DNA of 64,000 bases, from NCBI RefSeq assembly GCF_024172085.1, contig NZ_JAMZDZ010000001.1:8432001-8496000 (forward strand). The letters are read 5' to 3'. The translations under genes and the position numbers were made by a program. This stretch comes from Hamadaea flava. Its GTDB lineage: Bacteria > Actinomycetota > Actinomycetes > Mycobacteriales > Micromonosporaceae. Positions 50,210 through 57,150 of the stretch are shown one piece after another; position 1 is the stretch's first letter, and each line of letters begins with the position of its first letter. Below the pieces are notes generated by a model, which saw only the letters and a program-made list of their open reading frames with translations, had not been told where the DNA came from and made no database searches.

Positions 50210-51043
50210 TCAAACGATCGTTGACGGTGTTTCCGGCGGATCTTCAGTAGGTCGCGGCGGCCGGGAACCGGTCGGGGAAGGTGATGGCGAAGGCGTTTTG
50301 CGTCCTGGCGACCCGCCTCGTCGTCCACCTCGTTTGGTTGCGATCCAGGCGGCAACGACGACTAACCAGCCGGCGAGCACGTCGAGCACCCAGTGGTTGG
50401 CCGTGCCGACGACGACGAACGCGCTCAGTCCGGCGTACGTCCAGCCCGCGATGCGCAGCGACCACCGTCGCGCCCCGCGATGCAGTGCCAGCGCCACCCA
50501 CAGGGACCAGCCCGCGTGGAGCGACGGGAACGCGGCCAGCTCGTTGGTCAGACTCCCGGTGCCGCGCGGCGCGGAAGCGTCAGCGCCCCACCAGCCGGCG
50601 TCGGAGTGGATGGACAAAATGTCCGGGTAGCCGGCCATCATCCGCGGCGGCGCCGTCGGCAACAGCAGGTACATCACCAGTCCGAGCGCCGTGGCGACCA
50701 GCAGCGCGCGTCTGGCTGGCAGGTAGACGCGGCGCCCCCGACGGTAGAGCCAGATCAGCACGAGGGGCGTGCCGACATAGTGAGCGGTGCTGTACCAGAA
50801 GCACGAGAGCAGTCCGACGAGTGGATGGGCGGCCACGTAGCGAACGATTCCGTGCTCCCAGTCCAGATCGAAGACAGCCTCGAAGTCGAGGAGTCGGTGC
50901 GCCCGCACCAGTGCGGGAGCCCGGTCGTCGGCAGCCAGCAACCGCGCGGCCGTGTAAGCCACGTAGAAGACGGAGGCCAAGAGCAACTCCCGCACCGCGC
51001 CGGCGCCCTCACTCCCATCGAGCTCGCGGTCGGGCGTGCCCAC
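50210..51043 (-). CDS. PAP2-family membrane phosphatase (inositolphosphotransferase-like)
   Basis: About 277 residues with five or six helices. Marks of PAP2 are YLLLPTAPPRM (first motif), FPSLHAGWSLW (SxxH motif) and a final ANHWVLDVLAGW (H...D), as in the AUR1/PAP2_3 group. These enzymes cleave lipid phosphates or transfer head groups at the outer face of the membrane. GTG 51043 is preferred because similarity starts there; the frame is open to an ATG at 51199. The C-terminal Pro/Ser-rich tail is odd. Confidence 0.85.
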   Translation of the reverse strand: MGTPDRELDGSEGAGAVRELLLASVFYVAYTAARLLAADDRAPALVRAHRLLDFEAVFDLDWEHGIVRYVAAHPLVGLLSCFWYSTAHYVGTPLVLIWLYRRGRRVYLPARRALLVATALGLVMYLLLPTAPPRMMAGYPDILSIHSDAGWWGADASAPRGTGSLTNELAAFPSLHAGWSLWVALALHRGARRWSLRIAGWTYAGLSAFVVVGTANHWVLDVLAGWLVVVAAWIATKRGGRRGGSPGRKTPSPSPSPTGSRPPRPTEDPPETPSTIV

Positions 51044-51334
51044 CCTGTTTCTGCTTCCCCGTGACACCGGCTCTATACCCCGCGCCCTGAAAAATCGTCC
51101 TGGGACCGCCAGACGTACGTGATATTTACCCCACACCGCTACGAACGGGATAACGGATGCGACCGTCGTCGTGGACTCGGGCCACCCTGCACGCGTCATC
51201 CGTTACTTCGAGCGGCGCCGCATCGGGGTCAAGTCGTCACAAGAGATCTTGAGAATCGTCCAAGGGAGCGTCGGATGACTGCAGCGCGACACATAGTTGC
51301 GGACGCGGCGGCGGTGCGCGAGATCTATCGACGC

Positions 51335-52028: not shown

Positions 52029-52556
52029 TCAACTTATGGCTCTCCAGTGTCGCGGGCTGCTCCGCAGTGCTGATGTCGGCGTCGGCGAGGAAGTCGATCG
52101 CCTGGTCCTCGCGGGCGTAAATCGGGCCGGGCCCCTGGGGCCGGTGGTCTCCGGGCCGTCGACCCACGCCGTGAACGTCCCGGCCGGTACGCGCGTCCGC
52201 AAAGGAATCGGCCAGCTGCCGTCGATCGTGGCGTCGCAGTCGGTGACCTGGTAGGTCAGCGTGATCCAGGCCCACTTGCGCGCCTCGATGTGCGGGTGGT
52301 CGACCGTGGTGCCGGTCAGGGCCACCCCGTCTCCGCCGCGGCCCGCGCCGGCGAAGTCGACCGCGTACCGCCCGGAGTTGCAGGCGCCGACCAGGGCCGT
52401 GAACGTGCGATCGGCCCAGCTGACCTGGGACACGCTGGTGCGCACGATGTGCGGCCAGAGCAGGTCCGCCCGCCAGCCGGCGACGGCGCCGCCCGCGAGC
52501 ACGCACAACACCAGGCCGACGACCAGAAAGTGCCTCCACGGTACGCGTACCGACAC
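52029..52556 (-). CDS. Signal-anchored hypothetical protein, possibly frameshifted at its 3' end
   Basis: A 175-residue protein with an N-terminal helix (FLVVGLVLCVLAGGAVAGW) and an outside domain with two Cys (VGACNSGRYAVDF and TDCDATIDG). The C-terminal 35 residues are Arg/Thr/Ser-rich (TPARTRRSTSSPTPTS), unlike the rest. From about 52130 another minus frame looks more coding (YAREDQAIDFLADADIS), so a shift may have replaced the natural end. It lies 45 bases beyond the end of the RiPP operon, same strand. Confidence 0.55.
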   Translation of the reverse strand: MSVRVPWRHFLVVGLVLCVLAGGAVAGWRADLLWPHIVRTSVSQVSWADRTFTALVGACNSGRYAVDFAGAGRGGDGVALTGTTVDHPHIEARKWAWITLTYQVTDCDATIDGSWPIPLRTRVPAGTFTAWVDGPETTGPRGPARFTPARTRRSTSSPTPTSALRSSPRHWRAIS

Positions 52557-52600: not shown

Positions 52601-53188
52601 TCAGTCGCTGTAGGACGGTGCGACCACGCAGTCCGTCGCGCCGTTCTGCCAGGCGTGGTTGTAGCGTCCGGCGAGCTTGGTGATGAACGTGACGATCGCC
52701 TTCTCGTCCAGCGGGTCCAGCCGTTGCAGCCGCTGCCAGGCGCTGAGCGCGATGCCGTGGCCGAGGTCCGGGTAGGGGGCGACGACGACGTCCCGCGGAT
52801 GCTTACGCCCGATGCGTTCGAGCTTCTCGATGTCCACGTCCGGCACGTCCGGCGCGTATTGGAGCATGATGTGGCCGTGTTCGAGCACGTGGACCTGAAG
52901 CTCGGGCAGGATCGGCTCGCGGTAGACGCCCGGGGTGACCACCCGCGGCGAGTGCGGTCCGGAGGTGGGCGGCATGGTGCGGTAGGGGTCGTGCCCGGCG
53001 CCCTCGTAGGGGATGTGGTTGTTGCCCTCGAACTGTTCCGGCGTGCCGGGCAGCTGGTCGCATGGCCGCGCCGCGGTCTGGGTGGCCGCCCCGGCGAGGA
53101 CACCGACGCCGAGGCTGGACATGGTGATGATGCTCAGCGTGGTGACGGCGATGCTGACCACCGTCCCCAGCCAGCCCTGGCGGGTCAT
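52601..53188 (-). CDS. DUF3105 protein, last gene of candidate RiPP operon
   Basis: A 195-residue protein with one N-terminal helix (about 10-34) and an outside DUF3105 domain: CDQLPGTPEQFEGNNHIPYEG...YRTMPPTSGPHSP...VHVLEHGHIMLQYAP, with conserved His and Cys residues that probably bind metal. It overlaps the metalloprotease gene by ATGA. DUF3105 proteins have no known activity; here it may help in processing, export or protection from the peptide. Start ATG 53188 is fixed by the overlap. Confidence 0.88.
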   Translation of the reverse strand: MTRQGWLGTVVSIAVTTLSIITMSSLGVGVLAGAATQTAARPCDQLPGTPEQFEGNNHIPYEGAGHDPYRTMPPTSGPHSPRVVTPGVYREPILPELQVHVLEHGHIMLQYAPDVPDVDIEKLERIGRKHPRDVVVAPYPDLGHGIALSAWQRLQRLDPLDEKAIVTFITKLAGRYNHAWQNGATDCVVAPSYSD

Positions 53189-54396
53189 GACGCCGCTCCG
53201 GCGGCGGCCCGCCGACCGCGCAGCCAGTTGCGGACGGTCACGCCGAGCGGAAGCGTCACGTTCAGCAGGGCGAAGATCAGCAAACCGATCCCCTCCCACC
53301 AGTACGCGCTGCCGGGCGGGGCGCCGAGCAGCACACCGGCCGCCCAGCCGAACACGACCTTGGCGCTGGGCAGGAAGAAGTGTAGGAAGAACCAGGCCAT
53401 CCAGACGAGCCCGCTGAGATAGAGCAGCCGGTACCAGCGGGCGACCCGCAGATCTCGGGCGTGCGCGTCGCGCAGGATGGCGGCCTCGGCCGGGCTGAGC
53501 ATGCGGACGAGGCGTTTGACCGACAGCCGGGTGATCTGGTGCAGGTTGCGGCATCCGGTCGCGGTCGCCATCACCAGATACATGTCCGTACGCAGATACG
53601 CCAGCGTCTGGAACGCCAGCTTGGCGACCTGGCTGAACACCACCATAGCGAGCAGCCGGGCGAAGCTGGGGGAGATGTCGAGCCAGCCGCGCGACCAGGC
53701 GAACCGGGGAGCTACGGCACCGAACAGCATGACGCAGTCGATGGCCATCCCGGCCAGAAAGGGACTGTAGCGGCGTTCCGGCGGCAGCGCCCACAGCCCG
53801 GACAGGTCGGTCTCCAGCACCGGGAAGATGCCCCGCCGTTCGAGCCGCAGCTGGGACGGTACGCCGACCGCCGCCCCGGCCAGCGCGTGCCAGATCTCGT
53901 GGACCACGGTCAGCGCGATGACGACGATGTTGGTGACGATGAGGCTCAGCACGACGTCGGGGAAGAGAAAGGTGTCCTCATAGGTCGGCAGCAGGGACGG
54001 TTCGGTCAGGAACATCACGCCTGTGGCGACGAGGCAGCCGGCGTAGAGCGTCCAGGCGACCCGGCCGAACAGCGGGCGTACGAGGCGGGCGGGCAGGCGC
54101 GACACCGACCAGCTGCGGCCGCCGCCTGGTGGCCGGTCGGCGATGATGCCGGAGTCGACGAGCACCTCGGCGAAGTCGAGCGCGTCGATCGGCTCGCCGG
54201 TCTCCCGTTCGACCTCGTCGGCGGCCTCGGCGACGGTGTGCCCGGCGGCGAACAGCTCGACCAGCCGCGCGCCCACCTCGGGCACGACGACGAAGGTGCC
54301 GGTGGCCGGGTCGCCGACGACGAACTCGTCCTCGTCCTCCCGGCGTACGACGAGGTGGGCGACGTCCAGGCGGCTGCCGGGGCCGAGGGCGATCAT
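53185..54396 (-). CDS. PqqD-like domain fused to M50-type membrane metalloprotease
   Basis: A 403-residue protein. Residues about 1-85 resemble PqqD (VVPEVGARLVELFAAGHTVAEAADEVERETG), a RiPP leader-binding fold. Then come five or six helices with zinc motif HEIWH (about 166-170) in VVHEIWHALAGAAVG, and later LRTDMYLVMATATGCRNLHQ, whose Asp fits the third ligand in YydH-like peptide zinc proteases. It would bind the leader and cut it in or near the membrane. ATGA overlaps on both sides couple it to the E1-like and DUF3105 genes. Start ATG 54396. Confidence 0.85.
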   Translation of the reverse strand: MIALGPGSRLDVAHLVVRREDEDEFVVGDPATGTFVVVPEVGARLVELFAAGHTVAEAADEVERETGEPIDALDFAEVLVDSGIIADRPPGGGRSWSVSRLPARLVRPLFGRVAWTLYAGCLVATGVMFLTEPSLLPTYEDTFLFPDVVLSLIVTNIVVIALTVVHEIWHALAGAAVGVPSQLRLERRGIFPVLETDLSGLWALPPERRYSPFLAGMAIDCVMLFGAVAPRFAWSRGWLDISPSFARLLAMVVFSQVAKLAFQTLAYLRTDMYLVMATATGCRNLHQITRLSVKRLVRMLSPAEAAILRDAHARDLRVARWYRLLYLSGLVWMAWFFLHFFLPSAKVVFGWAAGVLLGAPPGSAYWWEGIGLLIFALLNVTLPLGVTVRNWLRGRRAAAGAAS

Positions 54397-55496
54397 CGGG
54401 GCGCCCCGACCCAGCCGCACCTGCCGCAGGTCCGCCCGGGCTCGGGGCGTACCGCGTAGTGGTAGGTCAGATCGGTAAGGCTCAGGTGGAACATCAGCCC
54501 GCGGGTCGTGGTCGGGATGCCGGTCAGGTGGTAGACGGCGTCCAGCGCGGCGAGGTGGCCGGTCAGGTTGGCCGACGGGGCGATCACCGCGTGCCCGTCG
54601 AAGGCGAAGAGGTCCTCGGGCCGCGCGCCGTGCTCGTCGGCGAGCCGGTCGGCCACGCTCGGCAGGCAGTCGGGGCAGCAGGTCTGGCCGGGGACGAAGA
54701 GGCCGACGACCGCCATGGGGCCGGCGTACTGGGCCAGCATCCAGGGCGTGCCGGTACGCAGCGCCGCCTTGTTCGTCCACTCGCGGATGAGGTGGCGGGG
54801 CTGGTCGGCGCACAGCACGAGCAGATCCTGGTCGCGCATCAGGGTCGCGGCGGTGTCGGCGGAGTCGATCCGGACCTCCTCGCCGGTGACCTTGGTCGAG
54901 GAGTTGAGCCGCCGCAGGCGTTCGACCGCCACGGAGACCTTGGGGAAGCCGATGTCGTCCTCGGTGTACAGCAGCTGCCGCGTGAGGTTGCCCTCCTCGA
55001 CGACGTCGAAATCGACGCAGTGCACGGCACCGACCCCGGCGGCGACGAGCGAGGCGGCGACGGACGATCCGGTGCCGCCGAGTCCGGCGATCACGACCCG
55101 GCTGGCCTTGAGCGTCGCCTGCACGTCATACGGCGACGTACGCGGAGTCAGGTCGACCCAGGCGTAGTACGTCATCGCCCGGTCGTATCGGTCGACCTCG
55201 GCTGGGCTCAGTTCGGGCGGGACCGGTGCGGCGGCGTCCTCCACGTAACCGGCGTCGATGATCGTCTGGATCGTCTCGGCGGTGTCGTCCGGGTCGGTGC
55301 CGGGGTGCGTCCCGGCGAGCGCGGCGACGATCTCGTCGCGCGTACGCGTGCCGTCCATGAGGCCGAGCAGCGCCCACAGCGAGCCGTCCTCGTCGTCCAT
55401 CTCGGCGCCGATGCCCAGCTGCCGGCCACCGATGCTGATCAAGGTCGGGGTGAGCCGCATGGGCTTGTGGATGCGTTTGATCCGTGGTCGCAACAC
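54393..55496 (-). CDS. E1/ThiF-like adenylating enzyme with N-terminal RRE-like domain
   Basis: A 367-residue enzyme. Residues about 10-100 (LTPTLISIGGRQLGIG...SLWALLGLMDGTRTRDEIVAALAG) look like the winged-helix leader-binding part of TOMM-type cyclodehydratase partners. The ThiF fold has VVIAGLGGTGSSVAASLVAAG for ATP, VDFDVVEEGNLTRQLLY and a zinc knuckle from CCPDC and CGRCG. It could activate a C-terminus or side chain of the precursor. No YcaO is present, so it is not a standard azoline system. GTG 55496 follows GGAGG. Confidence 0.85.
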   Translation of the reverse strand: MLRPRIKRIHKPMRLTPTLISIGGRQLGIGAEMDDEDGSLWALLGLMDGTRTRDEIVAALAGTHPGTDPDDTAETIQTIIDAGYVEDAAAPVPPELSPAEVDRYDRAMTYYAWVDLTPRTSPYDVQATLKASRVVIAGLGGTGSSVAASLVAAGVGAVHCVDFDVVEEGNLTRQLLYTEDDIGFPKVSVAVERLRRLNSSTKVTGEEVRIDSADTAATLMRDQDLLVLCADQPRHLIREWTNKAALRTGTPWMLAQYAGPMAVVGLFVPGQTCCPDCLPSVADRLADEHGARPEDLFAFDGHAVIAPSANLTGHLAALDAVYHLTGIPTTTRGLMFHLSLTDLTYHYAVRPEPGRTCGRCGWVGAPR

Positions 55497-55540
55497 CGTC
55501 GTCGAACCTCCGTCGAGCACTCCGCGGGAAGCAGGGCAGG

Positions 55541-55570
55541 GCCGGGGCCACGGCGTACCGCGGCCCCGGC
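55541..55570 (-). terminator. Hairpin between precursor and modification genes (attenuator)
   Basis: GCCGGGGCC (55541-55549) and GGCCCCGGC (55562-55570) with a 12-base loop, 8 bases past the precursor stop. Such partial terminators give high precursor and low enzyme expression in RiPP operons. Confidence 0.7.
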
Positions 55571-55578
55571 GGCGGCTG

Positions 55579-55698
55579 CTAGCCGCAGACCTCGTTCCGG
55601 CAGCCCGGGTCGACGACGATGACGGCCGTGGTCTCCAGCCGCTCAAGCTTGCGGACGACGACCTTGGCCGGCTTGCGGGTCTCGACGGTCTTCTCCAT
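55579..55698 (-). CDS. Candidate RiPP precursor peptide, 39 residues
   Basis: ATG 55698 is preceded by a near-perfect AGGAGG 5 bases upstream. The peptide opens MEKTVETRKPAKVVVRKLER, continues LETTAVIVVD and ends PGCRNEVCG before TAG. Its charged N-terminus (Lys/Arg/Glu) with a hydrophobic stretch is leader-like. The C-terminus with Cys33 and Cys38, Asn35 and a terminal Gly is core-like. It is first in an operon with an E1-like enzyme, PqqD-M50 protease and DUF3105 gene and is separated from them by a hairpin. Too short for standard gene callers. Product type unknown. Confidence 0.8.
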   Translation of the reverse strand: MEKTVETRKPAKVVVRKLERLETTAVIVVDPGCRNEVCG

Positions 55699-56247
55699 GG
55701 TTTCCTCCTATGGATGGGGAGAAACGGGGTCCGAGGGGTGCACCACTCGCTTGCGAACCATGGAAACAGAGGCGGTGATCATTGCCAATATAAGAATCAA
55801 TCAATCAAGTTGTTCTGTCACCTAGCTGACGGATGAATACCGCCACCCCGGGCAGAACGGGCTCAGCCGATCGTGGCGTGCCGGGCCAAGGCGGGGAAGA
55901 CCTGCTCCACGAGCATGATCAACGTAGTGGCGGGCACCTGGTGCACCCGCTCGCGGTCGGGGGTGTCGCGTTGCAGTGTCGTCCGACGGGGCGGGCACGG
56001 CGCTGCCGGTTCGAGCCGGGTCCGGCGGCGTACGCCCAGATGCCGCCTGCAGGCTCGCGCCGAGGACGCCGATCTGATCAGGCTGGGACCTGAGCGTGGA
56101 TTCGACCATCACTAGGCGCACCAGCACACAGCCGGCGCACGCCGCGAGGTTGACCTGCATAGAGGGTCAGACGTGGGTCCACATGTCAAGCCGGGCTCGC
56201 GTCCGCTTGTTAGAGAGCTGTGAGCGCCACCCGTCATCATCGCGGGC
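55699..56247. other. Intergenic region with the RiPP operon promoter
   Basis: AT-rich DNA at about 55775-55815 contains TATATT on the minus strand (about 55786-55791), a likely -10 element for the RiPP operon, with a GATT repeat just upstream. 55830-56160 has a weakly coding minus-strand look but no start, domain or ribosome site. The rest shows nothing. Confidence 0.45.
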
Positions 56248-57150
56248 ATGAGGACAAAGAGGATTCTCCTAGCCCTATCTCTAGGAGTACTTGGCTCCGT
56301 CATGATTGCGACCGGCGCGGTCGCGATCGAGCCCAGCTACGACGTCGCAGCCCTGCAGCGCGTCAAGGCGACGCTGGACGCCGACGGCGCAGCGAGAATT
56401 CCCGGCACGAGCTGGATCGTGGACGCAAGCTCCCAGCGGGTCGTGGTGTCTTATGACGACACCGTCACCGATGGCAAGCTGACTGCTTTGAAGGCGGCGA
56501 CCCGGCGATTCGGCAGCTCGGTCCGGCTGGAGCACATGCCCGGCGTGCTGGAGCGGGCCGATTCCCGGACGGTCGGCGGCAATGCGATCTTCGGCGGATC
56601 GATTCGATGTTCCCTTGGTTTCAACGGCATCAGCGCCAGCGGAACCTACTATTTCATCACCGCGGGCCACTGCACGAACGAGGCAGTCGACTGGTACGAC
56701 AACGACCACACCACGTACCTGGGGTACCGGGCAGCGTCCTACTACGGTGGCTCGGACTACGGGATCGTGCGTTACACGAACGCGACGATCGCCAAGTACG
56801 GCACGGTCGAGAGCAACTATGACGGCACCTATCAGGACATCACGGGCTCGCGGCGGGCGCAGCTCGACGAGTTCATCTGCCGCAGCGGGAGCACCACCGG
56901 GCGCAGATGTGGCTATGTCCGTGATCTTTGTGCCACCGTCACCTACACCGACGGCGTGACGCTGTATTGCATGATCAAAACCACGGCGTGCATGGACCAC
57001 GGCGACAGCGGTGGACCCCTATGGTCAGGCTCGTCGGCGCTCGGGGTGCTCTCTGGCGGCATGACGGGCTGTTCCGCGCACCCGAGCGGTCCCAGCTACT
57101 TCATGCCGGTGCAACAGATCGTCGACACCTACGGCATCCGGCTCTATTGA
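56248..57150 (+). CDS. Secreted S1-family serine protease (streptogrisin-like)
   Basis: A 300-residue pre-pro-protease. Sec signal (RILLALSLGVLGSVMIATGAVA) up to about residue 27, a pro-region to about 107 and mature domain from TVGGNAIFGG. The catalytic triad is His in FITAGHC, Asp in GGSDYGIVRY and Ser in HGDSGGPLW. Paired Cys fit disulfides, including the CSLGF...GHC pair. It acts outside the cell. It is divergent from the RiPP operon at a distance, with no clear link, though a secreted protease could also process peptides. Confidence 0.92.
   Translation: MRTKRILLALSLGVLGSVMIATGAVAIEPSYDVAALQRVKATLDADGAARIPGTSWIVDASSQRVVVSYDDTVTDGKLTALKAATRRFGSSVRLEHMPGVLERADSRTVGGNAIFGGSIRCSLGFNGISASGTYYFITAGHCTNEAVDWYDNDHTTYLGYRAASYYGGSDYGIVRYTNATIAKYGTVESNYDGTYQDITGSRRAQLDEFICRSGSTTGRRCGYVRDLCATVTYTDGVTLYCMIKTTACMDHGDSGGPLWSGSSALGVLSGGMTGCSAHPSGPSYFMPVQQIVDTYGIRLY

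What the first reader, a model, noticed from the sequence alone, without database searches (positions are those of the whole stretch)
52601..55698. Candidate RiPP operon with E1-like enzyme, PqqD-M50 protease and DUF3105, but no YcaO or radical-SAM enzyme
Four tightly packed minus-strand genes: a 39-residue peptide with two core-like cysteines, an E1/ThiF-like enzyme with an RRE-like N-terminus, a PqqD-like domain fused to a membrane HEIWH metalloprotease, and a DUF3105 protein. Three are coupled by ATGA overlaps. Known classes with ThiF-like enzymes use a YcaO partner (TOMM) or C-terminal adenylation (microcin C, pantocin). This gene set matches neither exactly, so a new modification is possible.
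Basis: partly seen in the sequence, partly recalled or inferred. Interest (0 to 1): 0.88.

Follow-up and report, generated by a model that had tools for sequence, protein, structure and literature searches.

The report
Actinobacterial ThiF-enzyme peptide-modifying operon
A small gene set in an actinobacterium appears to make a chemically modified short peptide with an E1-like (ubiquitin-activation type) enzyme and a membrane protease, and relatives with different peptide endings occur in several actinobacterial families, so it looks like an uncharacterised branch of a recently recognised kind of peptide natural product.

Summary
Four minus-strand genes encode a 39-aa precursor, an E1/ThiF-like enzyme with an RRE-like N-terminus, a PqqD-M50 membrane protease and a DUF3105 protein. 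All 15 distinct E1s of this clade (the window's included) have a precursor just upstream, 14 with the core (D/E)PG(G)nCR(N/D)xxC(G/S). By one rule, a precursor with a related leader was found beside 46 of 79 E1s, against 0 of 9 housekeeping ThiF-family genes and 1 of 79 on the opposite strand. The E1 matches MccB and PaaA better than MoeB or ThiF, and keeps ATP-site Arg/Lys (79 of 79) and Asp (77 of 79). Two genomes holding the cluster have no YcaO. Most likely the E1 adenylates a precursor carboxylate, preferably the C-terminal Gly, and an internal nucleophile captures it. Here I favour a Cys33 thiolactone, at about one in three. Sister-clade cores lack Cys but all carry Arg and end in Gly or Ala, so Cys is not the family-wide nucleophile. 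My paper searches listed no description. No chemistry was tested.

The parts
55579..55698 (-). precursor peptide, 39 aa, MEKTVETRKPAKVVVRKLERLETT + AVIVVDPGCRNEVCG
   Evidence: orthologues beside E1; pN below pS in 12 of 12 comparisons
55627..55698 (-). leader part of the precursor (residues 1-24, to LETT); the cleavage site after LETT is inferred
   Evidence: RKLExLETT is the most conserved stretch (R16, L18, E19, L21, E22, T23, T24 invariant in 9 of 9)
55582..55626 (-). putative core (residues 25-39) with Cys33, Arg34, Cys38 and C-terminal Gly39
   Evidence: two-Cys core in 14 of 15 clade-A rows; Arg and a small C-terminal residue in 27 of 27 rows of clades A and B
55704..55709 (-). AGGAGG ribosome-binding site of the precursor
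   Evidence: sequence
54393..55496 (-). E1/ThiF-like adenylyltransferase, 367 aa, GTG start
   Evidence: Pfam ThiF 1.4e-40; PDB profile hits MccB 3.9e-38, PaaA 4e-29
55212..55496 (-). RRE-like N-terminal domain of the E1 (about residues 1-95; boundary inferred)
   Evidence: PaaA aligns from residue 3; MccB aligned over about 330 columns
54459..55130 (-). ThiF adenylation domain (residues 123-346) with GLGGTG, R173, K186, D231 and cysteines 274, 277 (357 and 360 lie just after it)
   Evidence: in 79 E1s R173 79, K186 79, D231 77, C274 78, C277 79
53185..54396 (-). PqqD-like domain fused to a multi-helix membrane metalloprotease (M50/site-2 type), 403 aa
   Evidence: HEIWH and D271 conserved; homologue annotated site-2 protease family
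54142..54327 (-). PqqD/RRE-like domain of the protease (residues 24-85)
   Evidence: Pfam PqqD 0.002, below cut-off; Foldseek TbiB1 probability 1.00, E 0.22
53887..53901 (-). HEIWH zinc motif (residues 166-170)
52601..53188 (-). DUF3105 protein with an N-terminal hydrophobic stretch (secreted or anchored, inferred)
   Evidence: Pfam DUF3105 1.3e-27; beside the cluster in 13 of 13 clade-A loci, 10 of them distinct

Best explanation
A RiPP operon of the ThiF-like-adenylyltransferase kind. The leader (RKLERLETT region) of the 39-aa precursor binds the RRE-like N-terminus of the E1. The E1 uses ATP-Mg to adenylate a carboxylate of the precursor, most likely the C-terminal one (Gly39), and an internal nucleophile displaces AMP to give a cross-link or macrocycle. 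For this clade I think a thiolactone from Cys33 to Gly39 is the likeliest single product (about 1 in 3). A side-chain Asp/Glu partner, an Arg, backbone or N-terminal nucleophile, or a disulfide on top of another modification are alternatives. The PqqD-M50 protease binds the same leader through a second RRE and cuts it off in the membrane, releasing the product outward. DUF3105 acts on or handles the released product outside the cytoplasm. Shown here: gene content, conservation, intact adenylation residues, relation to MccB/PaaA, no need for YcaO. Inferred: every chemical step, which carboxylate and which nucleophile, the cleavage site, the role of DUF3105.
For: E1 profile hits in the PDB rank MccB (3.9e-38) and PaaA (4e-29, aligned from residue 3 and so including the RRE) above MoeB (3.4e-28) and ThiF (1.6e-23); Foldseek ranks MccB first. 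The ATP/Mg residues R173, K186, D231 lie 13 and 45 residues apart, the spacing of Arg167, Lys180, Asp225 named in the EnfB account of PMC12250964, and are kept in 79, 79 and 77 of 79; ThiF partners of YcaO enzymes serve only as docking domains (PMC12150305). Precursors recur beside E1, under purifying selection in the window's clade, with one leader type and diverse cores. All 27 clade A and B cores end in Gly (22), Ala (4) or Ser (1), consistent with C-terminal activation. M50 proteases are known RiPP proteases (TglG, TmoG, EpeP; passages of PMC10885120). GrcB makes a thiolactone with the same enzyme type.
Against: Thiolactone is not general: the sister row L047 and all 12 clade-B cores have no Cys, so either the nucleophile differs or Cys plays another role. 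In GrcB the link joins a Glu side chain and a C-terminal Cys, not a C-terminal Gly. No transporter or other further gene is conserved between clade-A genera in the flanks held. The E1 model has mean pLDDT 65.9 with a poor N-terminus. No precursor was found by my rule beside 33 of 79 E1s: 26 of 26 in the family-f4 remainder, 3 of 10 in clade C, 4 of 16 in group II (the f4 loci held only 1.5 kb of flank). No mass data exist.
Confidence: 0.55

Rival explanations
1. The E1 activates the C-terminus but the conserved Arg of the core, not Cys, is the partner (or positions the substrate); the product is an Arg-linked macrocycle (acylguanidine), and the cysteines of this clade form a disulfide or a second linkage.
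For: Arg is present in all 27 clade A and B cores, whereas Cys is in 14. A later-found Nonomuraea gerenzanensis precursor also has Arg at core position 3 and ends in Gly (SWRDGGG).
Against: No enzyme of this kind is known to me to acylate Arg. Arg could instead be a binding residue. Clade C and group-II cores do not share the pattern (ALNSNPSG; FIHQREDELA and others). Of the three other plasmid loci, two gave no candidate and one a core without Arg (NSPCANAS).
Confidence: 0.12
2. Microcin-C-like chemistry: the C-terminus is joined to a nucleotide through a phosphoramidate or amide rather than cyclised.
For: MccB is the closest solved relative; 8 of 12 clade-B cores end in NG, DG or NGA.
Against: MccA ends in Asn, whose side chain takes part (side-chain part recalled); here clade A and B cores end in Gly, Ala or Ser. 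In this clade two Cys are conserved without an obvious role in such chemistry. No further gene is conserved between clade-A genera.
Confidence: 0.13
3. A TOMM-like pathway: the E1 is only a docking partner and a distant YcaO makes azolines from the cysteines.
For: Weak TIGR03882 (TOMM leader-binding) hit to the E1, 21.4 bits against a 36.9 cut-off; a clade-B E1 scores 33.3; the genome has two YcaO genes.
Against: YcaO is absent from G182 and G816, which hold E1s of this clade, and is about 177 kb away in the window genome. ATP-site residues are intact. Clade-B cores lack Cys and 8 of 12 lack Ser and Thr too.
Confidence: 0.04
4. A sulfur-carrier-like system: the E1 turns the C-terminal Gly into a thiocarboxylate and the peptide is a small sulfur donor, not a natural product.
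For: The E1 superfamily does this for ThiS and MoaD (recalled); 22 of 27 clade A and B cores end in Gly.
Against: Length, leader and an RRE-bearing protease fit a RiPP; cores vary between sister clades; the tree parts the E1s from the housekeeping ThiF-family proteins; no further gene is conserved between clade-A genera.
Confidence: 0.05
5. Head-to-tail cyclisation: after leader removal the new N-terminus attacks the adenylated C-terminus.
For: Would work for all cores whatever their side chains.
Against: The E1 is expected to need the leader (RRE), and in ind the protease prefers the already modified precursor. The membrane protease would have to act before a cytosolic enzyme.
Confidence: 0.08

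Closest known systems
GRC-type RiPPs (GrcA/GrcB, Streptococcus pneumoniae)
   Same: 39-aa precursor, RRE-ThiF enzyme, Cys near the C-terminus, thiolactone by ATP-dependent activation (PMC12250964 section 4).
   Different: GRC has two radical-SAM enzymes, a stand-alone RRE and a transporter, and links Glu35 to Cys39. Here: nearest radical SAM about 142 kb away, PqqD-M50 and DUF3105, Cys-Gly C-terminus.
Microcin C (MccA/MccB) and pantocin A (PaaA)
   Same: Closest solved structures of the E1; RRE plus adenylation domain.
   Different: Other precursors and products; PqqD-M50 and DUF3105 partners are not mentioned in the parts of the accounts that I saw.
Enterofaecin (EnfB) and ind (IndF)
   Same: RRE-ThiF enzyme, ATP-dependent cyclisation of the C-terminus (-18 Da shown for IndF), conserved ATP-site residues; ind also has a peptidase.
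   Different: Imide/amide or Trp-linked products in enterococci and streptococci; M16 protease in ind.
Pearlins and epipeptides with M50 proteases (TglG, TmoG, EpeP)
   Same: Membrane M50 metalloprotease processes the peptide.
   Different: Different modification enzymes; here the protease carries a PqqD-like domain and sits next to an E1.
Housekeeping MoeB/ThiF-type proteins
   Same: Same superfamily and nucleotide site.
   Different: Separate clade, extra RRE, precursor and protease partners; 0 of 9 housekeeping loci show the motif peptide.

Membership tests
ThiF-like-adenylyltransferase RiPPs | RRE fused to a ThiF/E1 domain | tested here: met
   PaaA aligned from residue 3; MccB fold over about 330 columns. 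The Pfam PqqD hit to the N-terminus is below cut-off and that part of the model is poor.
ThiF-like-adenylyltransferase RiPPs | intact ATP/Mg residues (Arg, Lys, Asp) | tested here: met
   R173 79/79, K186 79/79, D231 77/79
ThiF-like-adenylyltransferase RiPPs | conserved short precursor beside the enzyme | tested here: met
   15 of 15 in the window's clade, 46 of 79 over all E1s, 0 of 26 in the family-f4 remainder
ThiF-like-adenylyltransferase RiPPs | ATP-dependent activation of a precursor carboxylate | not testable with these tools
   needs in vitro assay
GRC-type (thiolactone) RiPPs | radical-SAM enzymes in the cluster | tested here: not met
   no radical-SAM domain in the four operon genes; nearest of 20 matches in the window genome about 142 kb away
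GRC-type (thiolactone) RiPPs | Cys thiolactone in the product | not testable with these tools
   needs mass spectrometry
Microcin C | short MccA-type precursor ending in Asn | tested here: not met
   precursors have a leader and end in Gly or Ser in this clade
TOMM (azol(in)e) RiPPs | YcaO partner in the cluster | tested here: not met
   no YcaO match in 2 of 12 genomes holding the E1; about 177 kb away in the window genome
Housekeeping MoeB/ThiF | E1 groups with the genomes' own housekeeping ThiF-family proteins | tested here: not met
   9 housekeeping rows split from 79 by one branch, support 100; quick method, long branch
Housekeeping MoeB/ThiF | NCBIfam equivalog score reached | tested here: not met
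   ThiF 108.9 against 275.25, MoeB 100.3 against 266

The most novel reading that the evidence does not exclude
A broad actinobacterial RiPP class in which two leader-binding domains (on an E1 adenylyltransferase and on a PqqD-M50 membrane protease) read one LETT-type leader, and the E1 joins the activated C-terminal Gly/Ala to the invariant core Arg as a macrocyclic acylguanidine, a bond not known to me from RiPPs; the window's clade adds two cysteines for a second ring, with DUF3105 as an extracytoplasmic maturation or immunity factor.
Probability: 0.1. Interest if true: 0.85.

Novelty: new variant of a known kind. Interest (0 to 1): 0.55.

Why it matters
The ThiF-like RiPP enzymes characterised in the papers I saw come from Escherichia coli, Bacillus, streptococci and enterococci (pantocin's Pantoea origin recalled), and they form different bonds. 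This is an actinobacterial branch with its precursors now in hand, a minimal set of genes and diverse cores on one leader, so the question of which nucleophile each enzyme uses can be tested directly by co-expression. It also pairs the E1 with a protease that seems to carry its own leader-binding domain.

Tried and rejected
Housekeeping MoeB/ThiF origin: rejected. TOMM: rejected. Cys as the family-wide nucleophile: rejected on clade-B cores. DUF3105 as a marker of two-Cys cores: rejected. It lies beside 13 of 13 clade-A loci, but also beside L047 (no Cys) and five other E1 loci (6 of 32 other E1 loci, 0 of 38 E1-less loci at phmmer E up to 1e-5, domains checked). My first DUF3105 profile was contaminated by out-of-frame stretches and was discarded; the second iteration still held such stretches, so I use only the single-sequence phmmer result. 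The gene after DUF3105 (52029-52556) and the PAP2 gene (50210-51199) have no tblastn match at E up to 0.01 in the nine named loci and are left out of the operon. For four DUF3105-bearing group-II loci or their kin (L049, L053, L055, L058; L055 without DUF3105) no precursor was recognised.

Published descriptions were sought: none of the listed titles and abstract openings describes this gene set, and no paper of the library contains the term DUF3105. Some searches listed only part of their hits. The library holds only open PMC papers, and the network of 27,400 RRE-ThiF candidates mentioned in PMC12150305 may include this family unseen.

Rows: the 83 M50 loci (9 named, 74 unnamed) hold three repeats (L002/L083, L004/L084, L009/L085), so the 13 clade-A loci are 10 distinct ones. 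The 74 unnamed loci cover 74 of the 82 matches and 2 of the 3 further ones; the window's own match and seven fragment matches, and G383, were not fetched. Dropped before the 79-row counts: E1 stretches under 180 aa, identical rows, and rows under 380 bits of the wide profile. Weaker PF00899 hits (at most 93 bits) were not put in the tree.
Full report
What is there. On the minus strand at 52601-55698 lie a 39-aa peptide gene, an E1/ThiF-like gene, a PqqD-like domain fused to a membrane HEIWH metalloprotease, and a DUF3105 gene; the last three overlap by ATGA. The window belongs to an 8.86-Mb single-contig genome; its closest named relative in the E1 scan is Hamadaea tsunoensis (91% E1 identity).

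Is the peptide real? A pattern-based scan (close relatives only) of one genome for each of 84,980 species gave 9 loci: Hamadaea, four Micromonospora, Kribbella, a Streptomyces sp., Allorhizocola and Labedaea. All 9 carry a short peptide just upstream, 8 with the two-Cys core and one (Labedaea) with only the leader in common. The M50 gene follows in 9 of 9, DUF3105 in 8 of 9 (one partial at a contig end). Against the window, pN is below pS in 12 of 12 comparisons.

How wide is it? The M50 profile hits 58 of 200 Micromonosporaceae genomes and 5 of 396 drawn over the phylum, two of which are the window genome and another of its family. The E1 profile hits 39 of 354 genomes of the family at E up to 1e-60, 42 of 200 of another family, f4, at E up to 1e-45, and 2 of 396 over the phylum at E up to 1e-45, one of them the search's own centre. 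Of 83 loci with the M50, 45 have the E1 and 38 do not (three repeats). Four records of the plasmid collection hold the E1 (the Nonomuraea one is 11.85 Mb and is probably a chromosome), and in 4 of 4 the M50 profile matches right after it; the record of the Nocardia plasmid names that gene site-2 protease family protein.

Precursor logic. With one scan rule, a candidate precursor (related leader, ribosome-binding site) was found beside 46 of 79 non-redundant E1s: clade A (the window's, with its sister row L047) 15 of 15, clade B 12 of 12, clade C 7 of 10, group II 12 of 16, family-f4 remainder 0 of 26 (the f4 loci held 1.5 kb of flank). Controls: 0 of 9 housekeeping loci, 1 of 79 on the opposite strand. 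The rule was shaped on some of these loci, so clade counts are descriptive. Fourteen clade-A rows have (D/E)PG(G)nCR(N/D)xxC(G/S); L047 ends QQIRWDLEG. Clade-B cores are GWRVIGAGG, GQRANG, TIRVLDMG, VLRNHDG, ADRKDG, TARGTNG, VIRESNGA (two), VIREGNGA (two), GVRDAVGG and AVRDAVGG. Thus Arg and a small C-terminal residue (22 Gly, 4 Ala, 1 Ser) are common to 27 of 27, Cys to 14 of 27. A Nonomuraea gerenzanensis precursor found afterwards ends SWRDGGG, in keeping with this; an Actinacidiphila one ends NSPCANAS, without Arg; the Streptomyces and Nocardia plasmid loci gave no candidate.

The enzyme. PDB profile search ranks MccB and PaaA first, then MoeB and ThiF; Foldseek ranks MccB first, on a model of modest confidence (mean pLDDT 65.9). 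The window genome has three ThiF-family proteins: this E1, a second E1 with its own M50, and one that scores far higher (283 bits) with the Pfam model, which I take as the housekeeping MoeB/MoeZ type (the name is inferred). In a tree of 88 rows nine such housekeeping proteins part from the 79 others with support 100, on a long branch that calls for caution. R173 and K186 are kept in 79 of 79 and D231 in 77 of 79, at the spacing of the residues named in the EnfB account of PMC12250964; the housekeeping rows keep them too, so this shows a working adenylation site, not RiPP function. YcaO has no match in 2 of 12 genomes that hold this E1, and the nearest radical-SAM gene in the window genome is about 142 kb off.

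The protease. HEIWH and an Asp are invariant; the N-terminus resembles the TbiB1 RRE (by Foldseek probability, not by E-value). M50 proteases already process pearlins and epipeptides (passages of PMC10885120).

DUF3105 accompanies 13 of 13 clade-A loci (10 distinct), 6 of 32 other E1 loci and 0 of 38 E1-less loci. One of these six (L050) has a precursor ending GSGCRNPAICDS, sharing GCRN and a following Cys with the window's core although its E1 is distant: a lead, n = 1. In my rough gene clustering no other family is shared between clade-A genera, apart from reverse-strand frames over these same genes; the flanking genes were not all typed.

Mechanism. Known ThiF-like RiPP enzymes adenylate a carboxylate that is then attacked by different nucleophiles (PMC12150305; PMC12250964). 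I therefore propose leader binding by the E1, adenylation of the C-terminal Gly, capture (Cys33 thiolactone favoured in this clade), membrane cleavage after LETT by the PqqD-M50 protease and release. None of the chemical steps was tested.

Papers: outline, sections 4, 5 and 6 and passages of PMC12250964; parts 1 and 2 of 3 of PMC12150305; passages of PMC12710340, PMC10885120 and PMC13381572, and a term search of PMC7794033 without hits; all others only as search listings.

Verdict. A real, conserved actinobacterial branch of ThiF-like-adenylyltransferase RiPPs, not described in anything my searches listed: a new variant of a known kind, with unknown final bond.

Noticed in passing
G000:C1:8801044-8803139 (locus L066): A second E1/PqqD-M50 pair in the window genome, with a different precursor ending FIHQREDELA; near relatives share IH and an acidic tail.
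   Followed up: partly
L068, L075, L078, L095, L098, L102, L103 and others: E1-less PqqD-M50 loci with leaders such as MKKIxVRK, in some several precursors in a row; 17 of 38 share a gene whose one typed member (L068) has TPR repeats and an N-terminal 390 residues without a significant solved match; 6 share a gene typed once (L078) as flavin reductase-like.
   Followed up: partly
L050, 3668 in the M50-strand orientation: Precursor MTITVKKVEALVATMCPVDGCGSGCRNPAICDS beside a distant E1 and a DUF3105 gene shares GCRN...C with the window's core.
   Followed up: partly
L123-L150 (family f4): E1 homologues, 19 of 28 without an M50 match within the 1.5 kb held, and no precursor by my rule in the 26 rows counted; L151, outside that set, has MKIQIRKLERIETTVACACGSCSDC.
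   Followed up: no
L217, L218, L219 (plasmids of Streptomyces, Nocardia, Actinacidiphila): Plasmid-borne ThiF adenylyltransferase genes directly followed by a gene that matches the M50 profile.
   Followed up: partly
G000:C1:8664597-8675742: Two YcaO genes about 9 kb apart in the window genome, possibly another RiPP cluster.
   Followed up: no
window 56248-57150 (+): Alpha-lytic/trypsin-like protease gene, divergent from the operon; link to the operon not tested.
   Followed up: no
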